NCBI RefSeq assembly: GCF_011290685.1
Contig: NZ_JAANYN010000002.1
Coordinates: 861,347 to 925,346, forward strand
Length of the DNA: 64,000 bases
Source of the DNA: Cyclobacterium plantarum
GTDB taxonomy: Bacteria; Bacteroidota; Bacteroidia; Cytophagales; Cyclobacteriaceae
Reading direction: 5' to 3'
Below, piece after piece: positions 32,179 to 37,012 of this stretch; the first letter of the stretch is position 1, and each line of letters begins with the position of its first letter. Below the pieces are notes generated by a model that was not told the origin of the DNA, searched no databases, and was given only the letters and a program-made list of their open reading frames with translations. The translations under genes and the position numbers were made by a program.

Positions 32179-33536
32179 AAAAATTCCAGATTATCATTTA
32201 TTTGTCTTTTCTTTGGCTTCCTCTGAGCGCCCAGCAAGATTCCACCGTCTGGAAAACAGCAATTGAATTGGGACTTCGCTCCTATTTTATGAGCACCAGC
32301 TACACGGGAGATTTTAAAAATGACCATGCCTGGGGTCAAATGGCAAAGGTAGAAACTAGCACAAGTCTTCCCTTTGGATTTAAAGTGAATGGGGAATACC
32401 TGGGCTTTCTACGGATTTTGAGTTCAGACCTTAGGGCATTGGACCCCCGCGTGCCAAACCTTAATCGTTATGAGGTGGGCCTTTTTGATGTGAATCATTT
32501 GGACCGCAGGCTGTTTGGGAAAATAGGCAAACTGAACCTGGCTTTCGAAAAGGGGAAATTCCAGGCTATTTTGGGCAGGATGGAAATCAACACGCCTTTC
32601 ATCAACCAGCAGGATGGCAGGCTGAGTCCCACCTTTGTAGAAGGATTAAGGGTAGGATTACTACCCAACCCCAATGTACACATCAAGAGTAATCTGATAT
32701 GGGCAGTCTCACCTCGATCTACCGGGAATTGGTTTGCCTTGGATGAAAGCATGGGCATGTACCCGGTAGGAAGGGATGAATTTGGTAATCCTTCCAGCTA
32801 TTTTGGCAATACCAATGTTGATTTTATCCACGTTTTAGATATTGATTTCACCTTAAAAGACAATACCAATCTTCAGCTCAATCATACCTTTGTGGAAAAT
32901 ATTTACAGCAGCTTTCTGGCTCAATGGGACAAAAGCTGGAACATCCCTGATTCCAACCTTAAGGCAATTACAGGAATACAAGCCAGCATTCAACATGGGA
33001 TTGGAAACGGGGGAAATGAGGAAGTTGATCTCCGGTACAAAAATCCGGAGGATTTCAATTGGATAGTGAGTGGAAGAATGGGCCTTCAGTCCAGGCGAAA
33101 TCTATGGCACCTGAACTATACCAAAATTCAGGGAAAGGGACGCTACCTCAGCCCCAGGGAGTGGGGAAGAGATCCTTTCTATACCTTTATTCCCAGGGAA
33201 AGAAATGAAGGATTGGGACATGCAGATGCCATCAGTACCTACTTCCAGCATTCCCTGGCACAAAAACCGCTTCAAGTGTATACCTTTATGGGACTATATT
33301 TTCTTCCTGATGCGGCCGATGCCAGCCGTAATAAGTACGCTGTTCCCAGTTATGCCCAGCTCAATTTGGGCATGCGGTACAATTTGAAGGAATGGGTAGA
33401 GGGGCTTAACCTGCATTTGATATTAATGGGTAAAGCGGCATTAGATCAGCAAAACCTCAAACCGGCATGGGTTTACAATAAAGTCAACCTTTTTCATGTC
33501 AATACCATTCTAAATTATACTATTCCATGGAAATAA
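32175..33536 (+). CDS. Outer-membrane porin-like protein (OprD-like pattern)
   Basis: A 453-residue protein with a signal peptide (LSAQQ at about 20) and long runs of alternating beta-strand pattern that end in an aromatic-rich C-terminus (LNYTIPWK). The segment GRMEINTPFINQQDGRLSPT (about 136-155) resembles the strand of OprD-type porins. The ATG overlaps the cytochrome stop by 4 bp (ATGA), so it is co-translated with it. A role in letting the cytochrome's substrate through the outer membrane is inferred. Confidence 0.7.
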   Translation: MKKFQIIIYLSFLWLPLSAQQDSTVWKTAIELGLRSYFMSTSYTGDFKNDHAWGQMAKVETSTSLPFGFKVNGEYLGFLRILSSDLRALDPRVPNLNRYEVGLFDVNHLDRRLFGKIGKLNLAFEKGKFQAILGRMEINTPFINQQDGRLSPTFVEGLRVGLLPNPNVHIKSNLIWAVSPRSTGNWFALDESMGMYPVGRDEFGNPSSYFGNTNVDFIHVLDIDFTLKDNTNLQLNHTFVENIYSSFLAQWDKSWNIPDSNLKAITGIQASIQHGIGNGGNEEVDLRYKNPEDFNWIVSGRMGLQSRRNLWHLNYTKIQGKGRYLSPREWGRDPFYTFIPRERNEGLGHADAISTYFQHSLAQKPLQVYTFMGLYFLPDAADASRNKYAVPSYAQLNLGMRYNLKEWVEGLNLHLILMGKAALDQQNLKPAWVYNKVNLFHVNTILNYTIPWK

Positions 33537-33548
33537 CTTTGCACCGCT

Positions 33549-33693
33549 CCGCGGAATTTGTAATCCCCGGACGCACGCGAAAGCAGGATTACAAATCCTG
33601 TTTATCTGTCGTCCGACATTACAAATGTCGGACAGCGCAGCTCTGCGGAATTTGCAATTCCGTGGAACTGATGAGGGGGATTTGCAATCCCCA
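33549..33693. repeat. Palindrome array A (RAYT-associated)
   Basis: Five palindromes between the porin stop and the transposase gene. Cores are at 33556, 33588, 33618, 33650 and 33680, spaced 32, 30, 32 and 30. The first is a fusion of type H1 (left arm GCGGAATT) and type H2 (right arm AATCCCC). Exactly 30 bp are missing, which equals the normal H1-to-H2 core distance, so recombination between cores is likely. The later four are types H3, H4, H1 and H2. Confidence 0.9.
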
Positions 33694-33797
33694 CTTAAAC
33701 TCGAAAAATAAAATTACCAAATCAGATATTGATTTTTAACTCCCTGAACAGTAAATTGATAGGGTTAAAACAACTGTTCATTTTAAATTTTTTACAC

Positions 33798-34325
33798 ATG
33801 CCCTCTTCATATACCATCAAAGACCAGGAAGCCCTTCATTTTGTAACCTTCACTGTTCACCAATGGGTAGATGTCTTTACAAGGAATGATTATGTTGAGA
33901 TCATTATTGAAAGTATGAACTACTGCCAAAAAGCCAAAGGATTAAAGGTGCATGCCTGGGTTATCATGAGCAATCATTGTCACTTTATTTTGAGCAGTGC
34001 CAAGGAACCACTAAGTGATATCATCAGGGATTTCAAGAAATTCACGGCCAAAAAAATCGTTGAAGAGATTCAGAATAATGAAAGAGAAAGCAGAAAAAAG
34101 TGGCTTTTATGGTTATTCCAAAAAAATGGACAGATATGGTTTTGGGAAAAGGGATACCATGGGATCGAGATTTTCTCTCAAAAGTTATTCGCATCAAAAG
34201 TAAATTACATTCACTTCAACCCTGTAAAAGCCGGCATTGTTGAAAAAGAAGAAGAATACCTAAACAGCAGTTGTGGAGAATATTATGGTGTAAGAAAAAG
34301 TAAAATCATTCTGGCTACGGATTGA
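33798..34325 (+). CDS. REP-associated tyrosine transposase (RAYT, Y1_Tnp family)
   Basis: A 175-residue transposase-like HUH nuclease. The HUH motif is in VHAWVIMSNHCHFIL (His60-Cys-His62), and the helix with the likely nucleophile is FASKVNYIHFNPVKAGIV (Tyr137). The ATG at 33798 gives the usual N-terminus (MPSSYTIKDQEALHFVTFT); a longer reading frame from 33729 has no support. There is one copy, apparently intact. It lies between palindrome arrays A and B, with a third array (C) 2.3 kb away, as RAYTs do with the REP sequences they mobilise in other bacteria. Confidence 0.9.
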   Translation: MPSSYTIKDQEALHFVTFTVHQWVDVFTRNDYVEIIIESMNYCQKAKGLKVHAWVIMSNHCHFILSSAKEPLSDIIRDFKKFTAKKIVEEIQNNERESRKKWLLWLFQKNGQIWFWEKGYHGIEIFSQKLFASKVNYIHFNPVKAGIVEKEEEYLNSSCGEYYGVRKSKIILATD

Positions 34326-34348
34326 AAATACTATTTTAGTAGTAGGAA

Positions 34349-34683
34349 CGTGCGCGAAAACAGGATTGCAAATCCTGTTTATCTATCGTCCGACATTGCA
34401 AATGTCGGACAGCACGGCAGCACCGCTCCGCGGAATTTGTAATTCCGTGGTACAGATGAGGGAGATTTGTAATCCCCGGACGCGCACGAAAGCAGGATTG
34501 CAAATCCTGTTTATCTATCGTCCGACATTACAAATGTCGGACAGCGCGGCAGCACGGCTATGCGGAATTTGCAATTCTGTGGTACAGATGACGGGGGATT
34601 TGTAATCCCCGAATGGTCACGAAAGCAGGATTGCAAATCCTGAGTATCTGCCGTCCGACATTGCAAATGTCGGACAGCGCGGC
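34349..34683. repeat. Palindrome array B (RAYT-associated)
   Basis: Ten palindromes between the transposase stop and the stop of the BNR-4 gene. Cores start at 34365, 34395, 34435, 34465, 34497, 34527, 34567, 34598, 34630 and 34660. Steps are 30-32 bp except for two of 40, where an 8-bp insert (GCAGCACG-like) lies between H4 and H1. The order is H3-H4, then two full H1-H2-H3-H4 units. The array ends a few bases before the stop codon of the gene coming from the other side. Confidence 0.9.
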
Positions 34684-34691
34684 TAGGGTGG

Positions 34692-36092
34692 CTATTCCAG
34701 CTCCAACAGATAAAGCTGGCTTGGGCCGGGATGGGGTTCGGGATGGGGACGGTCCCTGTTTCGGGGCAGGGTCTCCCATTTAAGAAGGTATGTTTTGCCG
34801 TTTTCGGCATGGCCCATATCAGAAGCAGAACGGACCGCTAATCCAGGAAAATCACCTTCTGGTTCCAAACCTGAAATATACGTTTCGGGTTTCAGCACTT
34901 CTCCTATGGGATTCAGGTCCTTGTCCAGCAAAATGGTGCCCTCGCCATATTCCACATGATGGTATCCCAGTTCATAATTTCCATCCTCCCGCCTTTCAAA
35001 GGCTCCTACACGGACTTCAAAATCAATGCTTCCCCGACCTGAAAATTCCCAGCGGTAATTCCAATCGGTCACCTGCTTGTAAGTCCATTCTCCATCTTTG
35101 GCCCTGGCCACATAAAATTGAAGGTTGCCAGCTTCATCGTATTTGTGGTAAGCCATCAAAGCATGCTGATTTTCATCCAGGCAAAGTTTAGCGGCAAGGT
35201 TGATGATACCACCACCCGGAGGGATGGGGTCAACGATCACCGATTCCTGGTCAATGGTTACCGGAATGCTAACCGCCTGGCCGAAAGCATTGTACCAATT
35301 AATCATATCCGGACTTTTGATATAGGATAAATCATGGTTGGTTTCGCAGTCAGGCGTATCCCGCCATACCCAATACATGTGGTACCAATTATCTTCATGG
35401 AGGGACGGCTGGGAAGCATAGGCATTCATTTCCCCTTTTCCATCTGTTAAGGGTGCATCCAGAAGTCTGGACCATTTTCCCGATTCAGTGTCGTAAATAT
35501 TATAAATTTCATTCCCATTACCGCTTCCCCCATCGCGGTAATGAAAAATCAATTCCCCTTCCCTGGTGGTCATGAATTTGGGATAGGTACAACGCTTCTC
35601 GTCCCTGCCTACCATTTCCATTTCCTGTTCCAGCGAGCTGATATCATTTGGTCTGCTGGATTTAAAATAGGTAATGGGATGCACATGCATGTTTCCCGAT
35701 AGGTGGATATAGCCTTCCTTGTCTATACCAAAGGTAACGGAGTTGTGGCTGTCCCAATTGAGGATGGTGCTGGTACCTTCCCCTTCCTCCCTGTCAAATA
35801 CAGGTAGGGTATACAACTCAAAGCTTGCTTCATCAAGGTTACGCTGGCCGACGGTCATGTGCCGGTCTTCGTTATAATAGGCAATGTATTGCCTGTCTCC
35901 ATGGGTCATCAGGGAAAATCCCACGGGATGTCCTGACCAAACACGATCTATGGGTATGCTTTTTTGCAAGGCCTTTCCCTGATCTCTTTCATCAATGATG
36001 ATGGGACCTTCTTCTTGACCCCCAGAACAGGAGAACAGTACATTGGATAACAGGGCAAGGCAGGCAAAAAGTAAGTTGGAATACTTCATCAT
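34692..36092 (-). CDS. BNR-4 family secreted protein, possible polysaccharide lyase (PUL)
   Basis: A lipoprotein of 466 residues (lipobox LFSCSG, Cys near 22). The ATG at 36090-36092 is preferred; a TTG precedes it. The body looks like a seven-bladed propeller of the BNR_4 type. It has motifs such as NWDSHNSVTFGIDKEGYIHLSGNMH and YPKFMTTREGELIFHYRDGGSGNG with conserved His, Tyr and Arg, as seen in ulvan/rhamnogalacturonan lyase families PL24/PL25/PL40. Whether it is a lyase here is unproven. The last ~15 residues contain an unusual RPHPEPHPGPSQ stretch. Confidence 0.75.
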   Translation of the reverse strand: MMKYSNLLFACLALLSNVLFSCSGGQEEGPIIIDERDQGKALQKSIPIDRVWSGHPVGFSLMTHGDRQYIAYYNEDRHMTVGQRNLDEASFELYTLPVFDREEGEGTSTILNWDSHNSVTFGIDKEGYIHLSGNMHVHPITYFKSSRPNDISSLEQEMEMVGRDEKRCTYPKFMTTREGELIFHYRDGGSGNGNEIYNIYDTESGKWSRLLDAPLTDGKGEMNAYASQPSLHEDNWYHMYWVWRDTPDCETNHDLSYIKSPDMINWYNAFGQAVSIPVTIDQESVIVDPIPPGGGIINLAAKLCLDENQHALMAYHKYDEAGNLQFYVARAKDGEWTYKQVTDWNYRWEFSGRGSIDFEVRVGAFERREDGNYELGYHHVEYGEGTILLDKDLNPIGEVLKPETYISGLEPEGDFPGLAVRSASDMGHAENGKTYLLKWETLPRNRDRPHPEPHPGPSQLYLLELE

Positions 36093-36117
36093 CAAGTCAT
36101 TTTTTTATTTGAGCAAA

Positions 36118-36588
36118 CTACTTCCATTCTGCTAAATCATAACCAATGGCCAGAGCCATGGTCATTTCCGCCACGTCTAAAAAGTGACTTGGATTCCAAT
36201 CACTAAAACCCGAAATATTTACCATTTCCCGCTCTGCCCTTTGGGCAAACCTGGACTCTCCGGTCAATCTGTAGGCATAGCTCAGGTGAAAAATCCTTCT
36301 CAATGCCTCCCTGGAAACAGAAAGCAACCTTCTGCCTATTTGTTTTCTTTCCAACAGGTCTTCACCAATGATTTGATCGGATTCCTGAACAATGGCCTGA
36401 TGCAAGTCATTCCATCGCTGGTCATTCTCTATTAACCCTTTAATTTCAACTTCTCCCTCCTCCATCAACAAAATCCTGGGATGACTGGTAACCGGCAGTT
36501 CCTTTGGAACCAGCTGAGCCCTTACCGGTGAAAAGGCAAGCATCATTCCTAAAAGGAAAAATTTACAGGCCAGTAATTCGAATTTCAT
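36118..36588 (-). pseudogene. Truncated heparinase II/III-like lyase (N-terminal fragment)
   Basis: 156 codons with a normal start and signal peptide (SPVRAQ). The sequence IGRRLLSVSREALRRIFHLS to DWNPSHFLDVAEMTMALAIG matches the N-terminal part of the 632-residue lyase at 37013-38911 (IGRRLLSTSRDMLHRV, DWNPSHFLDVAEMSTAVALA). It then ends at a TAG, 25 bp before the BNR-4 gene start. About three quarters of a lyase is missing, so it is a remnant. The repeat array C lies just before it. Confidence 0.85.
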
Positions 36589-36618
36589 GTTTGTTATCGT
36601 TTGTTTTTAATTAAAACG

Positions 36619-36990
36619 CTCCGCGGAATTTGTAATTCCGTGGTGCAGATGAGGGGGATTTGTAATCCCCGGACGCACACGAAAGCAGGATTACAAATCC
36701 TGAGTATCTATCGTACGACATTACAAATGTCGCACAGCGCGGCTCCGCGGAATTTGTAATTCCGTGGTACAGATGAAGGGGATTTGTAATCCCCGGATGG
36801 ACACGAAAGCAGGATTGCAAATCCTGTTTATCTGTCTTCCAACATTACAAATGTCGGACAGCAGGGCTCTGCGGAATTTGTAATTCCGTGGTGCAGATGA
36901 GGGGGATTTGTAATCCCCGAATGGACACGAAAGCAGGATTACAAATCCTGCTTATCTGTCGTCCGACATTGCAAATGTCGGACAGCACGG
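36619..36990. repeat. Palindrome array C: three exact 124-bp units (RAYT-associated)
   Basis: Twelve palindromes in three head-to-tail units with starts at 36621, 36745 and 36869, each exactly 124 bp. Core starts are 36628, 36658, 36690, 36720, 36752, 36782, 36814, 36844, 36876, 36906, 36938 and 36968, so the steps are 30, 32, 30, 32 throughout. Per unit: H1 GGAATTTGTAATTCC, H2 GGGATTTGTAATCCC, H3 AGGATTACAAATCCT, H4 CCGACATTACAAATGTCGG. The arms vary between units with some paired changes, and loops are TGT/TGC or ACA/GCA. Linkers (for example GGACGCACACGAAAG) are also conserved. Confidence 0.95.
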
Positions 36991-37012
36991 AAATGTCGCA
37001 CAACACGTCTTT

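What the first reader, a model, noticed from the sequence alone, without database searches (positions are those of the whole stretch)
33541..36995. Palindrome arrays with cores every 30/32 bp around a RAYT transposase
27 palindromes in three arrays share the core ATTACAAAT/ATTGCAAAT (or its complement). Within each 124-bp unit the four cores sit at steps of 30, 32, 30 and 32 bp, in the order minus, minus, plus, plus. In array C this holds without exception over 12 cores. A step of about 31 bp is close to three turns of B-DNA, so all cores face the same side of the helix. The palindrome arms (GGAATT, GGGATT, AGGATT, CCGACATT) differ and are kept as pairs, while the core is shared. A RAYT (HUH nuclease) sits between arrays A and B. 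That RAYTs copy REP-like hairpins is known from other bacteria; a four-hairpin unit with helical phasing is not something I know described.
Basis: partly seen in the sequence, partly recalled or inferred. Interest (0 to 1): 0.8.

Follow-up and report, generated by a model that had tools for sequence, protein, structure and literature searches.

The report
Double-hairpin repeats of a RAYT nuclease
In Cyclobacterium and many related bacteria, small scattered DNA repeats are built from a tagged pair of hairpins and sit at both ends of a single-strand-DNA nuclease gene that probably copies them, a two-hairpin version of the known REP repeats.

Summary
The arrays are real: 27 cores (26 palindromes, one chimera), with many copies elsewhere in the genome. 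The unit is not a helically phased quartet but an inverted pair of one 53-nt module: tag GCT, 10-bp triloop hairpin, linker (CAGAT here), second triloop hairpin. The 30-bp step is loop 3 + stem 10 + linker 10 + stem 7. Outer steps in this genome are 32, 39, 40 or 42 and relatives often use 28, so B-DNA phasing is not general.

Modules flank the RAYT in 44 of 64 loci with at least 55% identity, across Bacteroidota. Arms covary, the tag is G[CT]T in 138 of 153 modules, and left and right ends usually differ. Linker length changes once on the RAYT tree (shuffles: 8 or more). A covariance model finds modules in 68 of 146 genomes, own included: 18 of 21 with a close RAYT have 5 or more, against 21 of 125 others. 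Some genomes keep many modules without any RAYT match.

Best reading: REP-like substrates of a Bacteroidota RAYT, expanded in tandem. 'Atypical structures' at such RAYTs were reported in 2018; the tagged two-hairpin architecture is the new part. Mobility is inferred.

The parts
33546..33692 (.). array A: chimeric hairpin, one B module (-), one A module (+)
33546..33570 (+). chimera: GCT tag and 5' arm of hairpin 1 joined at the core to the 3' arm of hairpin 2 (about 30 bp lost)
   Evidence: sequence
33584..33636 (-). B module: GCT + hairpin H4 + GACAGATAAA + hairpin H3
33640..33692 (+). A module upstream of the RAYT: GCT + H1 + AACTGATGAG + H2
33798..34325 (+). RAYT (REP-associated tyrosine transposase, HUH/Y1), 175 aa, NHCH and YIHFNP motifs
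34361..34413 (-). B module downstream of the RAYT (array B)
34425..34477 (+). A module, array B
34493..34545 (-). B module, array B
34557..34610 (+). A module, array B (step 31)
34626..34678 (-). B module, array B
36618..36670 (+). A module, array C unit 1
36686..36738 (-). B module, array C unit 1
36742..36794 (+). A module, array C unit 2
36810..36862 (-). B module, array C unit 2
36866..36918 (+). A module, array C unit 3
36934..36986 (-). B module, array C unit 3

Best explanation
The arrays are REP-like, non-autonomous elements of a Bacteroidota RAYT. The recognition module is bipartite: 5'-GCT, a 10-bp triloop hairpin (inner ATT-TGY-AAT), a linker of about 10 nt (10-13 nt when hairpin 2 is counted as 5 bp), then a second, shorter triloop hairpin. 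Two slightly different modules, A (left end) and B (right end), stand inverted on either side of the RAYT gene (A> RAYT <B) and, without the gene, as A-B pairs and single modules elsewhere in the genome. Proposed working: when the DNA is single-stranded, the RAYT binds a module through its hairpins and tag, cuts near the tag or linker and transfers the strand, which copies or moves the pair to new sites. Once in place, a pair grows into tandem arrays of 123-132 bp by slippage or unequal recombination, and decays by deletion between cores. Shown by sequence: module anatomy, pairing of arms, tag, two end types, association and co-inheritance with the RAYT, spread, array growth and loss. Inferred: binding, cleavage, mobilisation, and slippage as the cause of tandem growth.
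For: Tag GCT in 13 of 13 window modules selected on cores and spacing alone, and G[CT]T in 138 of 153 RAYT-flanking modules selected on hairpins and spacing, not on the tag. Modules within 600 nt of the RAYT in 44 of 64 loci at 55% identity or more, 237 module hits near against 47 in 450,109 nt of far flank; 2 of 16 loci below 55%. Core-only selection: 3.43 of 4 adjoining arm positions pair near RAYTs, 1.84 when 3' arms are swapped between cores, maximum of 200 swaps 2.01. On 81 aligned modules the covariation score is 0.403 against 0.131 shuffled (pairing was a selection criterion). Linker-length class changes once on the RAYT tree, minimum of 200 shuffles 8. Modules left and right of the RAYT differ in hairpin-1 arms in 23 of 30 loci, same-side copies in 0 of 37 pairs. 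Covariance model: 68 of 146 genomes; 18 of 21 close-RAYT genomes have 5 or more modules, 21 of 125 others. The best solved-structure match of the RAYT model is TnpA-REP bound to a REP hairpin, 4er8.
Against: No insertion was caught: orthologous sites in relatives are too diverged to fix exact ends or a target. Modules persist with no RAYT match at E 1e-3 in G042, G083 and G104, and with only remote RAYT matches in G001 and G004, so array growth need not depend on this enzyme; G135, G070 and G119 have a close RAYT but 0, 3 and 1 modules. 20 of 64 RAYT loci showed no module by the criteria. The association test is not corrected for relatedness. Far cores also pair above the swapped level (2.58 of 4). 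The left/right difference could be drift of two old copies, and 7 of 30 loci do not show it.
Confidence: 0.8

Rival explanations
1. Helically phased array: cores face one side of B-DNA and are bound side by side by a double-strand DNA-binding (nucleoid) protein.
For: Steps of 30 and 32 in arrays A and C; 42, the commonest outer step, is also close to four turns.
Against: Outer steps of 39 and 40, inner steps 29 to 31; step 28 in 64 of 153 modules of relatives. Arms pair and covary, which double-strand binding does not need. Array B breaks the rule.
Confidence: 0.05
2. Arrays serve the host (transcript ends, mRNA protection or supercoiling sites) and the RAYT is a domesticated enzyme that maintains them.
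For: 128 of 142 paired hairpins in the fetched regions lie outside open frames of 200 aa or more, and modules persist in genomes without a close RAYT. PMC8266576 (section 29 read) refers to documented host functions of REPs.
Against: Copy number varies strongly within one genus: at least about 40 modules in six relatives (count saturated), 6 in G005, 0-1 in G002, G007, G009, G010. No expression data here.
Confidence: 0.2
3. Arrays are passive tandem repeats that spread by recombination and merely sit beside a RAYT by chance.
For: G001 has an 11-copy 123-bp array with no close RAYT.
Against: Modules are concentrated at RAYT genes in many genera with a co-inherited linker class.
Confidence: 0.05

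Closest known systems
TnpA-REP/RAYT subclass 2.6 (Bertels group 5) with 'atypical secondary structures' (Quentin et al. 2018, PMC6006769; passages seen)
   Same: Bacteroidetes, no GT[AG]G tag, gene flanked by hairpin structures with copies elsewhere in the genome, about 180 aa, SS motif in the tail.
   Different: Window motifs are NHCH and YIHFNP rather than NH[LIV]H and YIH[QN]NP; the passages that I saw do not describe a tag, two hairpins per end or left/right types. Its supplementary Table S1 could not be read here.
REP/BIME and REPIN of Proteobacteria (GTAG-tagged REPs; PMC3733652 and PMC8266576 passages; PMC3116915 seen only as a search listing)
   Same: Tag 5' of a short hairpin, inverted pairs, clusters, RAYT flanked by the repeats.
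   Different: Tag is GCT, and each 'REP' is a pair of hairpins joined by a conserved linker; A and B ends differ.
IS200/IS605 elements (IS608, ISDra2)
   Same: Gene between left and right ends that carry subterminal hairpins; Y1 HUH fold.
   Different: Two hairpins at each end, ends inverted, and one copy of this gene in the genome.

Membership tests
RAYT / TnpA-REP | Y1 HUH nuclease with REP-transposase profile | tested here: met
   NF047646 108 bits over cut-off 80; PF01797; AlphaFold model pLDDT 92.3, best match 4er8 E 3.3e-8, TM 0.70
RAYT / TnpA-REP | gene flanked by REP-like hairpins that recur in the genome | tested here: met
REP (canonical) | GTAG or GTGG tetranucleotide at the 5' foot of the hairpin | tested here: not met
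   tag is GCT in 13 of 13 window modules and 121 of 153 modules at RAYTs of relatives; GTAG stands before hairpin 2 in 16 of 64 short-linker modules
REP (canonical) | single short hairpin as the unit | tested here: not met
   two-hairpin module with narrow spacing
REPIN/BIME | two repeats in inverted orientation, clusters | tested here: met
   inverted A-B pairs and tandem clusters
RAYT subclass 2.6 / group 5 | HuH motif NH[LIV]H, Y motif YIH[QN]NP, HuH-Y distance about 82, insertion before beta4, SS motif | tested here: inconclusive
   NHCH, YIHFNP, distance 75, SS present; among the 79 tree rows NHCH 35, NHIH 30, YIHLNP 26, YIHQNP 21; no subclass 2.6 sequence was at hand
IS200/IS605 | active transposon with several near-identical copies of the transposase gene | tested here: not met
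   one match of this protein in the genome
REP (canonical) | cleavage of single-stranded REP by the cognate enzyme | not testable with these tools
   needs purified protein

The most novel reading that the evidence does not exclude
The RAYT locus is a true single-strand transposon whose two ends are each a two-hairpin module with a private left or right identity, and the gene-less A> <B pairs are its MITE-like derivatives. The enzyme reads tag, hairpin 1, a linker of set length and hairpin 2 together, so linker length acts as a specificity ruler that changed once among the RAYTs examined. By the guide rule tested in one GTAG system (last tag bases pair with the cut dinucleotide), a GCT tag predicts cutting at A|G, which lies inside the CAGAT linker (48 of 86 long-linker modules, 3 of 64 short-linker ones).
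Probability: 0.3. Interest if true: 0.7.

Novelty: new variant of a known kind. Interest (0 to 1): 0.52.

Why it matters
The REP-copying enzymes whose biochemistry I found described (E. coli, Stenotrophomonas, Marinomonas; PMC8266576) use single GTAG-tagged hairpins. The Bacteroidota branch was left as 'atypical'. A tagged two-hairpin module with distinct ends and a linker ruler gives that branch a defined substrate, makes its enzymes assayable with 53-nt oligonucleotides, and offers a natural set (28-, 29-, 30-nt spacings, GCT and GTT tags) to test how such enzymes choose where to cut. It also yields a covariance model that can annotate these repeats in many genomes.

Tried and rejected
Helical phasing: rejected as a general property. 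Exact insertion ends by empty sites: four isolated own-genome elements were compared with six relatives; at the L110 element G008, G004, G006, G003 and G001 lack it, but flanks are too diverged to place the ends; at L091 G011 has an A+B pair where this genome keeps mainly B, so single modules can be remnants. Strand bias of insertion was not tested: inverted pairs put one module on each strand. Sequence search of solved structures gave only a weak 4er8 hit (E 0.048), so fold comparison was used. The five further RAYT-profile matches of this genome, all below the cut-off, have other hairpins or none near them. Tag-linker covariation (GTT tags with TGTT-like linkers) was seen in a few Algoriphagus loci but contradicted there too (L151, L155 upstream); too few independent cases, left as a lead.

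Literature: eight searches; passages seen of PMC6006769, PMC3733652, PMC8266576 (plus its section 29), PMC12306157 (a REP-finding tool; lists three Bacteroidota genomes, no RAYT) and PMC11194056 (RayT genes beside a Chryseobacterium gene, no repeats). None of these passages describes a GCT-tagged two-hairpin repeat; subscription papers (for example Bertels et al. 2017, recalled) and all supplements were out of reach.

Rows dropped: one search kept the best 80 of 248 loci; one search used 61 of 64 loci (identity 55-83%); one search took one module per strand and side of each locus plus some own-genome ones (125 distinct), of which 81 were aligned, chosen by hand to avoid near-copies; trees left out L140 and L149 (long, interrupted matches) and, L170 (long branch), and two loci with mixed spacing (L116, L139) had no state; one search counted steps up to 50 only.
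Full report
WHAT IS THERE. The window lies in a 6.17-Mb, 37-contig genome whose nearest named relatives by its RAYT are Cyclobacterium species. Thirteen intact two-hairpin modules account for 26 of them and one chimera for the last. The chimera at 33546-33570 starts as hairpin 1 and ends as hairpin 2, as if by a deletion between two cores. Arrays A and C keep 30/32 steps; array B has steps of 40 and 31.

ANATOMY. H1-H2 read on the plus strand and H4-H3 read on the minus strand are the same thing: GCT, a 10-bp stem closed by ATT-TGY-AAT, a linker that mostly contains CAGAT, and a 7-bp stem with the same triloop core. I call the first type A (GCT-CCGCGGAATT..., GGGGATT hairpin) and the second type B (GCT-GTTCGACATT... 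or GCT-GTCCGACATT..., CAGGATT hairpin). The 30-bp step is 3 (loop) + 10 (stem) + 10 (linker) + 7 (stem). The 124-bp unit is A> <B. Upstream of the RAYT stands an A module, downstream an inverted B module, so the gene occupies the place of the short A-B spacer. Single-strand folding of one unit gives -30.4 kcal/mol, z = -6.0.

GENOME-WIDE. A 384-base query from array C has 41 matches. GGATTTGYAATCC occurs 77 times on the two strands (0 for the reversed control). There are 62 same-direction core pairs on 9 contigs and 23 inverted pairs (control 0). In 20 fetched regions, counting steps up to 50, same-direction steps are 29-31 in 66 of 68, converging inner steps 31-33 in 19 of 20, and outer steps 32 (4), 39 (2), 40 (4), 42 (9). 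Of 142 hairpins in pairs, 128 lie outside open frames of 200 aa or more. This protein has one match in the genome. The RAYT profile finds six, one above its cut-off.

RELATIVES. A scan of one genome per species returned 80 RAYT loci (the best 80 of 248). With criteria that demand hairpins and spacing but no tag, 44 of 64 loci at 55% identity or more have modules within 600 nt, 237 hits against 47 in 450,109 nt of far flank; 2 of 16 loci below 55% do. The 237 include pairs that straddle two modules. 153 modules in the forward sense remain, of which 121 have GCT and 138 G[CT]T immediately 5' of the stem, with spacings 28 (64), 29 (49), 30 (32), 31 (5) and three single others. Eighty-one of 125 distinct modules were aligned: covariation score 0.403 against 0.131 in shuffles, 11 of 16 pairs with changes on both sides. 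Because pairing was required in that selection, I repeated the test with cores alone: 210 cores near RAYTs in 47 of 61 loci pair at 3.43 of 4 adjoining positions, 1.84 after swapping arms; 53 far cores pair at 2.58, some of them probably further copies. At some loci below 55% identity the hairpins have other cores such as AAGTT-TGC-AACTT.

CO-INHERITANCE AND ENDS. Loci with linkers of 28 spacing (25) and of 29 or more (17) are separated by one change on the RAYT tree; 200 shuffles gave 8 to 17. In 30 loci with modules on both sides, hairpin-1 arms differ at 2 or more of 7 positions between sides in 23, and in none of 37 same-side pairs. The same-side copies are likely recent duplicates, so this shows separate left and right types, not their function.

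DISTRIBUTION. The covariance model R1, built partly from species of this group, finds modules in 68 of 146 genomes, own included; counts saturate near 40 because only 40 candidates per genome are scored. Taking RAYT matches with E below 1e-65 as close, 18 of 21 such genomes (own included) hold 5 or more modules against 21 of 125 others (Fisher 1e-9, relatedness not corrected). Exceptions in both directions matter: G135, G070 and G119 have a close RAYT but 0, 3 and 1 modules; G001 and G004 have 40 modules and only remote RAYT matches; G042 (30), G083 (21) and G104 (14) have no RAYT match at E 1e-3.

HISTORY OF THE LOCUS. At the same gene neighbourhood G011, G006 and G003 carry arrays and RAYT (G003 on two contigs). 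G001 has 36 hairpins (123-bp unit, 11.1 copies) and G004 eight, both without RAYT there. G008 has three hairpins at the A/B site and six at the C site, its RAYT lying on another contig. In the stretches fetched from G002, G005, G009 and G010 there are none, in that from G007 one. So arrays and RAYT come and go separately within one genus. Comparisons of four isolated elements showed presence and absence but no clean insertion edges.

PROTEIN. The AlphaFold model (pLDDT 92.3) matches TnpA-REP 4er8 best (E 3.3e-8, TM 0.70), then ISDra2 and other IS200-type transposases. The alignment has an invariant ESR..W segment (residues 97-102) between the long helix after HuH and the helix that carries the Tyr, roughly where Quentin et al. 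place the subclass 2.6 insertion that may read unusual REPs.

COMPARISON. Quentin et al. [quoted passage not shown] Corneloup et al. 2021 show that the tag can select the cut dinucleotide in one GTAG system (PMC8266576, passages and section 29). The present repeats look built to work like REPs but miss two defining features of the canonical REP (GTAG tag, single hairpin), so I file them as a new variant. Membership of the enzyme in subclass 2.6 is likely but untested.

MECHANISM, SHOWN AND INFERRED. Shown: structure, conservation, RAYT linkage, two end types, array growth and loss. Inferred from the family: single-strand binding, cutting and strand transfer. Inferred from array sequence: growth by slippage or unequal recombination.

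Noticed in passing
L246 (G000:C31:548309-548713) and L214 (G005): A second RAYT-like gene of this genome (72 bits, under the cut-off) is flanked by GAGGTCT-TTR-AGACCTC hairpins; similar GAGGTCT repeats stand beside the gene at the array C site in relative G005.
   Followed up: partly
L103 1660-2760; parts of it in L105, L108, L094: Another composite repeat with GTAGTT-TGC-AACTAC and GGCATT-TGY-AATGCC hairpins follows some A modules, with steps of 67-68, 76-83 and 119-120.
   Followed up: partly
window 33536-33546: Five relatives (G001, G003, G004, G006, G011) have a reading frame that looks thioredoxin-like by eye directly after the gene that ends at 33536; here array A starts at that point, so the gene seems lost.
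   Followed up: partly
L104 1728-1832: A single B module is bracketed by the inverted 7-mers GTATCGG and CCGATAC.
   Followed up: no
rows of G002, G012, G075: Core pairs with spacing 29-30 but linkers such as TTACACCTTTCTATC instead of CAGAT suggest a different repeat family with the same core.
   Followed up: no
L249 (G000:C32:151268): A RAYT-profile match lies among long perfect hairpins with AAAGTT/AACTTT stems.
   Followed up: no
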